Below are positions 20,101-44,100 of a DNA stretch of 64,000 nucleotides, piece after piece; within the stretch, counting starts at the first letter, position 1; every line of letters begins with the position of its first letter. The stretch comes from Siphonodentalium dalli. Taxonomy: Eukaryota; Mollusca; Scaphopoda; Gadilida; Siphonodentaliidae. The stretch spans positions 10,987,287 to 11,051,286 of the forward strand of contig CP136061.1 in the NCBI GenBank assembly GCA_032622095.1, in the 5' to 3' direction. The notes beneath the pieces are model-generated. The model searched no databases, was not told the DNA's origin, and was given only the letters and a program-made list of their open reading frames with translations. A program made the translations under genes and the position numbers.

Positions 20101-23100
20101 AGGTATCCGTCATCCATGTGTGTGTGTGTGTGTGCATGTGATCGCGTGTGTGTGAGGCGTCAACAATACAGCCAGCAGGTCGACCTTTGGTGAGATTATT
20201 ATGAAATTTGTAATAGCTGTTGACATAGACATTTAGATGGGAACAAGTCATTTTGGGGTCATTTGGAAAAAAAACATGGCCACCAGTGGCCATCTTGGAT
20301 TTCAAAATTCAATCCATTAGCACGGGCTACAGGTCATACTGTTCGTCTGATCATCATGAAATTTGTCATGGATGTTAATATTGAGATGTAGATGGGAACG
20401 AGCAAATTTGGGGTCGTTCGGCCAAAAAACATGGCTGCTGGCAGCCATCTTGGATTTTACTCTTGGCATGACTAAATCCTTTGGCATGGGCAACAAGTCG
20501 TACCTTTGGTTGGATCATCATAAAATTTGTCATGGATGTTAAGAATGACATGTAGATGGGAACGAGTTATTTTGACGTCATTCGGCCAAAAGACATGGCC
20601 GCCATCTTGGATTTTACTCTTTGCATGACTAAATCCTTTAGCACGGGCTACAGGTTGTACCTTTGGTCGGATCATCATGAAATTTGTCATGGCTTGTGAC
20701 ATTGATATGTTGATGGGAAGGGTGTGCAAATTAATTAGTCTGAATTAGCAATGCTGATTAGTGCTGAATGATGATGAATTGTATGAAATTACTCTTGATA
20801 TTATGGACAGTTCATTTAAATTTTGAGCTGTGTTGCTTATGTTGAAGCGACCAATAGTATATCTGCACAATCGGGAGAAATGGAATGTCTTCCGTATTTT
20901 TGAGGTGTTAACTATGGCAATCCGGGAGTCTCAAGGACAATCTGTGAAACTTAACAGCTCTTATACTCACGGTAACAAACTTTAAATTCTTCTCCATATT
21001 TGTGTCTAAATCATCAAAGAATATGCCACCAACTCCTCGTCGCTCACCTGTGAATAATGAATATTCATTAATGCTCCTGGTCGCTCACCTGTGAATAATT
21101 AATATTAATTAATACTACTCGTCACTCACCTGTGAATAATAATAATAATACCAGTTAAAGTGTTTACAAGTTTATACGATTCCGACAGGTGTAATTAAAC
21201 ACTAAAAAGTGTCTATGCATTGACCATTGAAAGTATATATTCTATCAATCGTTAAAACTATTGTGCACTGTGACGTCATACTGCAGAAGATACTTATAGT
21301 GTCATAATATGAATGGTAGCGAAATCGTTCAAACTCTGAAAGCGTAGCTTGTTCAATAGTCTGCAATAGTCCAATAACTGTACTGACGACCACTGCTATG
21401 GAACATAGTTTTAGCCACCGTGTTATGAAATATAATTGAGTTTTGGCAGGAAATGTGAACACGTGCTTTGCTGTTTATGCATCTGTGTTTGGGGCCTCAC
21501 CCGGGATAACGACACTATTCACTGTACTTTGACTTTATCTCCATATTGGGGGATATGTTTTGCATGGGATCTCAGAGCGTGAGTTGTTTCATGCACAGAA
21601 ATTTTGTGCAATAAATATCCATACTCAGCAGTCCGGCATTCTTTGATGTTACAGCGACATTTTCATATGTGTATTATACAGTTGGATTTTTGTTTACAAT
21701 AAATTGCTATTGACTTTAGATACATGTGTGTCTCAAACAGATCATCAGGAGAATGAGGCTGTTCCATGGACGATGAGCCATAGTAACGTAAACCATGCTC
21801 TATGTGTAATGAGGCTGTTCCATGGACGCTGAGCCATAGTAACGTAAACCATGCTCTATGTGTAATAAGGATATATACCTCTGTGTTTAATGTCGAAATA
21901 GTCGTCGCACCATTTCTTATATTCTGGGTAGTATTTCTTATCATGTTCATCACACGCCGTTTTCAGTGTCTTGTGAAAATGTATGACATCCTGAAGAAGA
22001 GAATGAGAGGTAAATAGTTTTTAACCATATAGATTGCAGCAGACGACACTCCATAGTGCATTCATGTATCTTTGTGAGGCTCTTTTTGGGTTAAACATTA
22101 AACTCGCCTCGGTTATTAACCCTTTCATGATGGTGCAGCATTAAAAATCATGTGCCTCAAAGGAAGTTCCGCATTGGAAGTTGGTGATGTTCACCCATTA
22201 GTCACCTCGATTATGTATTTTATCTTCTGCAAATTAGGGTATTATGGATACCAAACAGAAGGGAATAAGAGCATCGCTAGGGTGTGGCAAAATACGCCCT
22301 TTAGCCATTTTGAATTGTACTACTGCAAAAAAAAAAAAATACAACAAGAGATGGACTGTCGTCCGGTGCATACCCCCTCGTGGCATACCGCCTAGTGTGG
22401 GCACATCTATAACTTATGATGGCTATACTCAGACATATGGACCCAGAAATCAGCATTTTCATATAAACAAAGATGCATAACTATAGAAAAAAAGACCAAA
22501 ACAAACAGTTGAATGTGCCATTAAATGTCCTCATAGTGTTGAACATCCAAACAAAATTTCATTGAGATCCGAGCATTACTGTTCAAGTTATGAGCTGAAC
22601 AGACATCGGATGGACCAAACAGCCAACATTTCCTGATAAACAAAGATGAATAACTCTAGAATGGAATAGCGGAACAGAACAATGGAAACCCCTATTGAAT
22701 GTCCTCATAGCAGTGAACATCCATACCAAATTCCATTGAGATCCCAGCACAACTGTTGAAGTTACGACATGAACAGACACCAGATGGACCAAAAGCCAAC
22801 ATTTCCAGATGAACAAAGATGAATAACTCTAGAATGGAAAAGCGAAACAAAACGATGGAATCCTCTTTTTAATGTCCTCATAGTAGTGAACATCCATACC
22901 AAATCCCATTGAGATCCCAGTACAACTGTTGAAGTTACGACATGAACAGACACCAGACGGACCAAAAATCCAACATTTCAAAATAAACAAAGATGAATAA
23001 CTCTAGAATGGAAAATCCGAACAAAACGATGGAACCCTCTATTTAATGTCCTGATAGTTGTGAACATCCACACAAAATTTGGTTGAGATCTCAGCACAAC

Positions 23101-41100: not shown

Positions 41101-44100
41101 GGAAATTGTTGATGAATCACACACACACACCTACACGCACACACCCATGCACACACGGATACCAAGCAAGCCATTGCAATAGCTCAAACCTTACAAAGTA
41201 AAGTTGAGCTAAAAACCAATGGTTGGACAATTGTTATCATATGATAGTGAAGAGGGACTGTGTATTGTTAAAATCATTTCTAGAGAAGGAAAGTCAACAG
41301 GAAATTACAAGGACTGGTACAATGTGGAGTATCAAGCACCAGAATGGTTGATTGGAATGAAAAAGTCATTGTGTCTGAGTAGTGTTGAAAATATTCAAGA
41401 TTGGTATTGATAGAGTACCTGTATTAAGATTAGTATTCATAGCGTACCTGTATTAATATTAGTATTGGTAGCGTACCTGTATTAAGATTAGTATTCATAG
41501 CGTACCTGTATTCTTAAGATTAACACTTCCATTCTTGTCTGCATCTCGTCAGAATTCTGTAAGAAATAATATCAAAGACAAAAATTAGATATATTTGTCC
41601 ATGAAAGAAATATGTTAATATAGGGAATCTATGATCAGATATAGAGAATCTATGATCAGATATAGAGAATATATGATCAGATATAGAGAATATATGATCA
41701 GATATAGAGAATCTATGATCAGATATAGAGAATATATGATCAGATATAGAGAATATATGATCATATATAGAGAATATATGATCATATATAGAGAATATAT
41801 GATAAGATATAGAGAATATATGATCAGATATAGAGAATCTATTATCAGATATAGAGAATATATGTTCAGATATAGAGAATATATGATCAGATATCGAGAA
41901 TATATGATCAGATATAGAGAATATATGATCAGATATAGAGAATATATGATCAGATATTCAAGTCATTATTATAGTTTGTGTGTGTTTTATTGAGCTATTG
42001 AGCAACACTGTGCGAACCACAAAAAGATTAGCATTAAGTGTGCAAACCACGAAAAGATTAGCATTAAATGTGCTTGTTTCGTTTCATATTTTCCTGTATG
42101 TTACTGTTTTCAAACATAGCAAGAATACAAAACAACATTGTCAAATCAATGAAATGCCGGGCACCAGAACATGAAAAATGGCCACAGCGCATTACATGTA
42201 ACCAGAACATGACAAACGGCCACAACTAAATTACATGTAACCATCATTAAAACGCACCAAAATGCAGGCCACAGTGCATTACATGTAACCAGGGTTTCCG
42301 CCAAGGGAAAATTAATGAGTCCGTATTGGGGAAACACATAACGCGACGGGACGACCATGGTTCGTCCTGTTGGGCGAAAATTTTGTTATTTGACACTGAA
42401 TAGTAGCCATTTCCTTGCACCTGAGTGTCACACAAAGCAATCCAAACCTACGTATATTACGCAAGTCGATCATTTTCCGTGGGTGCATTAATTCTGTTGA
42501 TGGTATCCAGATAATTAATCATGTAATTACGCACGTAAGACTGCCGTCTGATTGAAGACTAATGAGACTATATCAAGCTACAACTTACAGTGTTTAAAAA
42601 TTTATAACTTACAATAAGATTCCGACAGGTATAATGAAACTAAACACTAAAAAGCATCTATCCAATACTACCTAGCTGGGAGAATTGAATTAAGTATTTC
42701 CTAGAATTTCAAGTAGCTTCCGTGAAAACGAAACTGATTTTTCCATGTATTCTTTCAATCGTAAAACTATGTGTGCGCTGTGACGTCATATATACTGCAG
42801 GATTTGTCTGCAGGAGATATTTATAGCGGCGAAATACGAATGTTAGTGAAATCATTCAAACTCGGAACGCGTAGCTTGCCAATAGTCTGTATTAGTCAAA
42901 CAACAGTTACTGACGACCGCTGCTATAGAGTTTTAGCCAACGTATTATAAAATATAATTGAGTTTTGGCGGGAAATGGGAACATGTGAGCCGTTGTTTGT
43001 GTTTGGGGACCCAGGCGGGACAACGAAACTATTATGGACCGTAATTTGACTTTATCTCCATATTGGGTGGGGGTATGTTTTTTGTGTTTATCCTCCATGC
43101 ATGTTATATGGGTCAAATAAATGGTGTTGTCACTATGAATTCCCGCTATAAAGACTGATTTGGGACAGGTTCCGTATTATAACAGTACGATAGCACGGGA
43201 TCTCGGAGGTAGATACCTCCATTGGTAGGAGAACCGCCTGTTGGCGTATGTTGATCCCTACTCTGCCTAACTCAGCAATTCGGCATTCTTTGATCAAATT
43301 ATGTAATCGTACGATAGCACGGGATCTCCGAGCGTGAGTAGTTTCAACCACAGAAATCCCGTGCGAAGTAATATCCGTACTCAGCAGTCCGACATTCTTT
43401 GATGTTACCGCGTCATTTATTACGCTGTATATAACGTCGCTATTTCAATGCACACCAAACATTACGTTGTAGTTTTGGCGCTTTGATTTCAAAGGGTTAC
43501 GCTGTACCGGTAAAGTACTGTACTCAATTAACCCGTTTTTCACCAGTATTCTGTTCAACCCCCCGAACTCCCGTTGCAGCCGGATTTTTTATGACATATT
43601 GCTACTGACTTTTGGTACATGTATGAATCAAAAAGATCATCTGCGAGGGGAATGGGTCCGTGGCCGGCCTGGCGGAAACCCTGATGTAACCTTCATTAAA
43701 ATGCACCCAAAACACAGACCACAGCGTATTACATGTAACCATCATTAAAACACATCCAAACGCAGACCACAGCGTATTACATGTAACCATCATTAAAATG
43801 CCCCCAAACGGCCACAGCGCATTACATGTAACCATCATTAAAACGCACCCAAACGGCCACAGCACATTGATGAAGATTAGCATAATTCAGATGACGATTA
43901 CAGTGATGATGAAGATGATGACGATGAGGACAAATTGAAGATGAAGTGTCACTATAGCTCAACTTGGAAAGGGAATAATTTCATGCGTTACAGTCAATGG
44001 AGCGATTAGGAATGCGGAAAGTTGAAAGGTCTAAGTAATACTACATTATCAACATGAAGAGATATATAAAGTAAAATCCAAGATGGTTGCTGATGGCTAT

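What the first reader, a model, noticed from the sequence alone, without database searches (positions are those of the whole stretch)
20971..41556. CPOX splice junctions are themselves tandemly duplicated at three separate exons
The sequence shows that the exon h acceptor (21047) is present three times, the exon d donor (34928) twice and the exon b donor (41506) four times. Each copied piece spans the exon-intron boundary by ~10-20 bases. Copies are frame-breaking or stop-bearing if used, so they are either silent decoys or create nonsense isoforms. Three independent cases in one gene suggest a bias, for example duplication-prone junctions or repeated slippage, rather than chance.
Basis: partly seen in the sequence, partly recalled or inferred. 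Interest (0 to 1): 0.75.

Follow-up and report, generated by a model that had tools for sequence, protein, structure and literature searches.

The report
Tandemly duplicated splice junctions, at background rate
In this repeat-rich animal genome short DNA stretches are often copied head to tail, and when a copy happens to cover an exon edge the gene gains spare splice sites; in the sample examined this happened at exon edges no more often than elsewhere in introns.

Summary
Two of the three reported CPOX junction duplications are real. The exon h acceptor (21047) has 3 copies, period 41 bp; the exon b donor (41506) has 4, period 29 bp. The exon d donor (34928) has only a 24-bp stretch at 83% identity, 31 bp away, a match reached by chance at about 1 junction in 77. 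Using any copy breaks the frame or brings a stop. The proposed bias does not hold. Of 166 further exon edges from the same genome (174 called; chaperonin, proteasome and DEAD exons), 8 have strong junction-spanning local duplications. With CPOX that is 10 of 185 (5.4%), against 442 of 7536 intron positions 40-200 bp away (5.9%); difference -0.3 points, 95% CI -3.8 to +2.9. In CPOX, 2 of 19 junctions compare with 194 of 779 nearby positions. The duplications are real (0 of 3970 positions in shuffled sequence), but junctions are neither favoured nor clearly spared. Decoy copies keep GT/AG about as drift predicts (18 of 22 against 17.8). Best explanation: ordinary tandem duplication in a minisatellite-rich genome, extra donors silent because the first of equal donors wins. 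No RNA was available.

The parts
41506..41556 (-). CPOX exon b (51 nt, ends phase 0, ...ATACAG)
   Evidence: joins in frame to exon c; weak match of this short exon to 2aex
41392..41512 (-). 29-bp tandem array, 4.1 copies; first copy holds the exon b donor (41506), further ACAG|GTAC donors at 41477, 41448, 41419; donor scores 7.9, 7.9, 7.9, 4.7
   Evidence: TRF
34928..35046 (-). CPOX exon d (119 nt); donor CCCG|GTAAGA
34882..34905 (-). weak partial copy of the exon d donor (copy donor at 34897), offset 31 bp, 24-bp match at 83%; donor score 5.8 against 8.9; chance level
20971..21047 (-). CPOX exon h (77 nt); begins GTGAGC, so the acceptor CACAG|GTGAGC also reads as a donor
21032..21149 (-). 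41-bp tandem array, 2.9 copies; acceptors at 21047 (functional, score 7.6), 21088 (8.3), 21129 (9.8); each also scores as a donor (10.5, 10.5, 12.1)
   Evidence: TRF
16983..17500 (-). 42-bp minisatellite, 12.4 copies, ending 4 bp before the exon i acceptor (16979) but not crossing it
4275..41556 (-). CPOX coding exons b-k (first coding exon not located)

Best explanation
The CPOX junction copies are chance hits of an ordinary process acting along the whole genome. In this minisatellite-rich genome, short stretches (periods of 29 to 83 bp in the cases here) are duplicated head to tail and may expand, with no detectable preference for exon edges. When a duplicated stretch covers a donor, the extra donors fall downstream in the intron; when it covers an acceptor, the extra acceptors fall upstream. 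The coding exon stays intact as long as the copy next to it is used. Inferred, not shown: extra donors are mostly silent because the first of several equal donors is the one used; extra acceptors have no such protection and may leak nonsense transcripts.
For: Junction rate equals intron rate: 10 of 185 against 442 of 7536, difference -0.003, CI -0.038 to 0.029, bootstrap over loci. By side: donors 7 of 90 against 285 of 3641; acceptors 3 of 95 against 157 of 3895. A wider control outside CPOX gives 8 of 166 against 1554 of 18624 intron positions (sums of its three sets). In CPOX introns, unused donor-like sites have such duplications at 11 of 112 and acceptor-like sites at 40 of 219. Cases outside CPOX have the same anatomy: the repeat takes in the exon edge and runs into the intron (L050, six further copies of a 58-bp unit; L025, L109, L082, L021, L007). 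Decoys keep their GT or AG in 18 of 22 copies, 17.8 expected from flank identity. Neither CPOX array has another match in the genome, so local origin is likely. In reporter libraries in human cells, when both tandem donors are consensus the first is predominantly used, and tandem acceptors show no order preference (PMC6783452, section 7 read).
Against: No RNA, so silence of the copies is not shown. The chaperonin sample alone had 5 of 43 junctions (11.6%) against 6.1% nearby, so an excess in some genes is not excluded; the interval also allows a depletion by about two thirds. Between seven pairs of duplicated genes only 2 of 71 listed indels of 8 bp or more matched a neighbouring copy at 85% or better, so fresh tandem duplication is not shown to be a leading kind of change here, though most pairs aligned poorly. 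The decoy count is small and uneven: 14 of the 22 copies come from L025 and L050, and copies under 75% alike (for example two of the three extra b donors) were not counted. The first-donor rule comes from human cells. By my simple score the functional h acceptor is the weakest of its three copies, which this explanation does not account for.
Confidence: 0.82

Rival explanations
1. Junctions are duplication-prone: something about splice junctions, such as paused transcription or R-loops, raises local tandem duplication.
For: Three cases reported in one gene, two of them real. The chaperonin sample has 5 of 43 junctions against 6.1% nearby.
Against: Pooled rate equals paired intron positions, 10 of 185 against 442 of 7536. 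Samples 2 and 3 show 1 of 48 and 2 of 75. In CPOX the junction rate, 2 of 19, is below its surroundings, 194 of 779.
Confidence: 0.07
2. The copies are functional: they are kept to create regulated nonsense or alternative isoforms.
For: Many copies keep strong sites. In L021 and L025 the extension to a strong downstream donor copy (63 or 78 nt) is in frame and open.
Against: GT/AG retention is about what drift predicts, 18 of 22 against 17.8. Seven of the ten duplicated junctions have periods that are not multiples of three (29, 41, 46, 53, 55, 58, 83). No excess at junctions.
Confidence: 0.08
3. Introner or intron gain: the arrays mark introns made recently by a mobile intron or by tandem duplication of AGGT.
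For: Both CPOX arrays carry AG|GT, the motif of the duplication model (passages of PMC3443670).
Against: The two ends of the b-c and g-h introns share nothing beyond 7-base words. The array sequences occur once in the genome (the search skips very common words). The introns are 5,347 and 831 nt. AG|GT junctions are not clearly over-represented among duplicated ones: 7 of 10 against 67 of 175 of the others, pooled p 0.050, stratified p 0.12.
Confidence: 0.02

Closest known systems
Minisatellites and short local tandem duplications in introns
   Same: Head-to-tail units of 29 and 41 bp, probably local origin, neutral-looking copies
   Different: These happen to take in an exon edge and carry a splice site in each unit
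Internal gene duplication / tandem genomic duplication as a source of introns (PMC3443670, passages; Hellsten 2011 and Gao and Lynch 2009 seen only in its reference list)
   Same: Tandem duplication of an AGGT-bearing stretch, giving units bounded by GT and AG
   Different: Here a long intron is already present and its two ends are unrelated; no new intron is evident
Tandem (alternative) 5' and 3' splice sites (PMC6783452, section 7 and passages)
   Same: Two or more near-equal donors or acceptors within tens of bases
   Different: Here they are natural duplicates with exon and intron context copied too, seven donors in a row in L050; use in RNA unknown
Recursive splice sites (AG|GT; name and motif recalled, no call)
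   Same: CACAG|GTGAGY in each h unit reads as acceptor and donor at once
   Different: No RNA; no evidence that it is used so

Membership tests
Minisatellite / short tandem duplication | two or more head-to-tail copies of a unit of about 10-100 bp | tested here: met
   TRF: 41 bp x 2.9 and 29 bp x 4.1; 0 of 3970 positions in nine shuffled loci
   10 of 185 against 442 of 7536; CI -0.038 to 0.029
Intron gain by tandem genomic duplication | donor and acceptor ends of the intron are copies of one exonic stretch | tested here: not met
   b donor against c acceptor and g donor against h acceptor share only 7-base words
Introner | many similar copies at other introns of the genome | tested here: not met
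   one match each, the query itself; the search skips very common words
Recursive splice site | AG|GT acceptor immediately followed by a good donor | tested here: met
   h copies: acceptor 7.6-9.8, donor 10.5-12.1 by a simple recalled matrix
Recursive splice site | stepwise splicing seen in RNA | not testable with these tools
   no RNA data
Alternative tandem splice sites | both copies used in RNA | not testable with these tools
   no RNA data

The most novel reading that the evidence does not exclude
About one sampled junction in twenty of this genome carries spare copies of itself, mostly with intact splice sites, and they are tolerated nearly as freely as any intron duplication. For AG|GT junctions this tolerance could be built in: every duplicated unit starts with GT and ends with AG, so if a wrong copy is used the join itself recreates a donor (exon g joined to the 21129 copy scores 11.1) and the extra units (82 nt at h, 87 nt at b) can be removed as a small intron in a second step. 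Such junctions would be self-correcting after duplication.
Probability: 0.1. Interest if true: 0.7.

Novelty: new member of a known kind. Interest (0 to 1): 0.33.

Why it matters
The bias claim falls, but the sample shows that in a minisatellite-rich animal genome about 5% of sampled exon edges (10 of 185) carry local duplicates of themselves, mostly with intact splice dinucleotides (18 of 22 copies). Such junctions are a natural experiment on how the spliceosome chooses among near-identical neighbouring sites with duplicated context. They also warn gene-prediction pipelines, which may pick the wrong copy.

Tried and rejected
Rejected: bias towards junctions; introner origin; intron gain by AGGT duplication; enrichment of AG|GT junctions among duplicated ones, pooled p 0.050 but stratified by donor and acceptor p 0.12.

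Led nowhere: aligning seven pairs of duplicated genes of the same genome to see duplication turnover; the fetched loci were 75-97% alike, flanks often did not align, and 2 of 71 listed indels matched a neighbouring copy at 85% or better. Naming the species by chromosome number: none of the 37 listed papers gave a 2.2-Gb animal with 9 chromosomes in the abstract start that I saw. Rfam on window 4000-44000 gave no match. Paper searches on duplicated splice sites and intron gain (listings only) showed no paper that by title or abstract start counts tandemly duplicated junctions over a genome; this covers only the open-licence library, and one search listed nothing.

Rows dropped before counting. 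First sample (30 loci): L001 and L002 (long single frames) and six second members of duplicated gene pairs (L004, L012, L015, L017, L024, L030), which scanned all 30 loci and printed every edge scoring 11 or more, showed none of these eight at 16 or more (L015 at 11). Second sample: L031 (single frame), L047 (relative of L043; no duplication printed) and 22 of 29 DEAD loci (L051-L063, L065-L067, L071-L075, L079), taken by eye for single-frame or mobile-element copies; that reading was not tested, and the edges of L031 and these 22 were not examined. Third sample: 18 of 23 unfetched chaperonin matches and 20 of 24 unfetched DEAD matches were fetched; two more chaperonin exons were read from loci held; three chaperonin matches were left out as second copies and four DEAD matches as likely mobile-element copies (by eye). 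Of 174 possible edges, 8 with a site score under 4 were left out. Junctions were called by homology plus a splice-site score whose weights I wrote from recall; L022 and L028 are ambiguous as to the exact site, and without both duplicated edges the count would be 8 of 183. Flanks in the third sample are only 300 bp, which lowers detection at junctions and controls alike.

An error corrected: one search tested the d copy at 34894; the copy donor is at 34897; the outcome, a stop at index 81, is the same.

Full report
WHAT IS THERE. The window lies on a 277-Mb contig of a 2.2-Gb genome in 9 contigs. The only CPOX gene found runs on the minus strand. Exons b to k were placed by homology and splice signals and join in frame to 307 residues and a stop. 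The first coding exon was not located. Introns are 585 to 11,709 nt. The window is full of tandem repeats: 137 TRF rows at minimum score 30, among them arrays of 3.9 and 5.5 kb.

THE THREE CASES. Exon h starts GTGAGC, so its acceptor is CACAG|GTGAGC. Three copies 41 bp apart stand at 21047, 21088 and 21129; the two extra ones lie upstream in the intron and score higher as acceptors (8.3, 9.8) than the functional one (7.6) by my simple matrix. The exon b donor ACAG|GTACGC has four copies 29 bp apart, at 41506, 41477, 41448 and 41419, scores 7.9, 7.9, 7.9, 4.7. The exon d donor has only a partial copy 31 bp downstream, 24 bp at 83%, score 14; random contexts reach 13 or more in 26 of 2000 trials. 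Use of any copy gives a premature stop.

IS IT A BIAS? I asked how often a position has a local direct repeat covering at least 5 bases on each side of it (ungapped, offset 10-250, score 20 or more). CPOX junctions: 2 of 19. Intron positions of CPOX: 1299 of 7234; intron positions 40-200 bp from its junctions: 194 of 779. I then sampled exons of other genes: chaperonin, proteasome, DEAD, with 38 further exons fetched with short flanks and two more found inside loci already held. Of 166 junctions kept (174 possible), 8 are duplicated: acceptors L007 and L022; donors L021, L025, L028, L050, L082, L109. With CPOX: 10 of 185 against 442 of 7536 paired intron positions; difference -0.003, 95% interval -0.038 to 0.029 over loci. 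By set: 5 of 43 against 6.1%, 1 of 48 against 3.3%, 2 of 75 against 2.5%. Nine shuffled loci gave 0 of 3970. Within the first sample, positions inside exons had 20 of 488.

So duplications are real and frequent, but junctions show no pooled excess. The first set alone leans towards an excess and the interval is wide, so neither a small bias nor a depletion is excluded. CPOX is in a dense stretch.

ANATOMY OF THE OTHER CASES. L050, a proteasome exon, ends PHGSTDSLPYVTM and is followed by six further copies of a 58-bp unit that carries the last part of the exon and its donor; the nearest copy matches over 80 bp at 99%. L025 has eight further copies, four with GT kept. L109 shows three copies in all, L082, L021 and L007 two. 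Reading the translations, the copy next to the intact exon is the one that keeps the conserved protein; extra donors lie downstream and extra acceptors upstream. This was judged by eye. L028 and L022 are ambiguous. Of 22 decoy copies at least 75% alike, 18 keep GT or AG; 17.8 expected from flank identity. The four losses are all in L025, and 14 of the 22 copies come from L025 and L050. That is about what neutral drift gives: no sign of selection to kill or to keep them, on a small count.

HOW IT LIKELY WORKS. Shown: no other match of either array in the genome, background rate, protein-breaking effect if used. Inferred: local origin and silence. In human reporter libraries, of two consensus donors the first is predominantly used, while acceptors show no order preference (PMC6783452, section 7 read). 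This predicts silent donor copies, which fits b, and leakier acceptor copies, which would bear on h. The counts do not separate donors from acceptors: 7 of 90 against 7.8% nearby, 3 of 95 against 4.0% nearby. Against a lively process at present: between seven pairs of duplicated genes 2 of 71 listed indels were tandem copies at 85% or better, in alignments that were mostly poor.

MOST NOVEL READING. Units around AG|GT run from GT to AG. If exon g is joined to the outer h copy, the join itself scores 11.1 as a donor, 82 nt before the proper acceptor; at b the span from the first to the last copy is 87 nt. A second splicing step could remove the surplus. The support is thin: AG|GT is 7 of 10 among duplicated junctions against 67 of 175 others, pooled p 0.050, stratified p 0.12.

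COMPARISON. It is not intron gain by duplication, since the ends of the introns are unrelated, and not an introner. It belongs with minisatellites and tandem splice sites. PMC3443670 was read in passages, PMC8724738 in two passages, one of them a reference; Hellsten 2011 and Gao and Lynch 2009 were not held.

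Noticed in passing
window 46205-51669: A 29-bp minisatellite of 188 copies at 99% match, 5.5 kb long.
   Followed up: no
window 1-3851: A 60-bp satellite of 64 copies at 96%, starting at or before the window edge.
   Followed up: no
window 56538-63360: 31-bp arrays appear twice with the same neighbours (59240-59812 and 62485-63057; 5-bp repeats at 60099 and 63344), spaced 3,245 bp: looks like a tandem segmental duplication.
   Followed up: no
window 15134-15634, 20176-20719, 38380-39117, 44354-44876, 52485-53517: Dispersed short arrays of a related unit of about 110-165 bp (consensus includes GGCCGAATGACCCC-like text), in both orientations; perhaps carried by a mobile element.
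   Followed up: no
window 16983-17500: A 42-bp minisatellite of 12 copies ends 4 bp before the exon i acceptor, so the acceptor region of exon i is the last unit of an array.
   Followed up: partly
window 40291-40507: A 24-bp array inside CPOX intron b-c; in one + strand frame its second half reads EDSDEDSP repeats, a unit two bases shorter shifting the frame midway.
   Followed up: partly
window 24339-25533 (-): Two open frames that look like reverse transcriptase pieces of a LINE inside CPOX intron f-g (by eye, not searched).
   Followed up: no
L003/L004, L011/L012, L014/L015, L016/L017, L023/L024, L027/L030: Several chaperonin genes occur as nearby duplicate copies, about 37 to 170 kb apart, loci 75-97% alike, suggesting many gene duplications in this genome.
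   Followed up: partly
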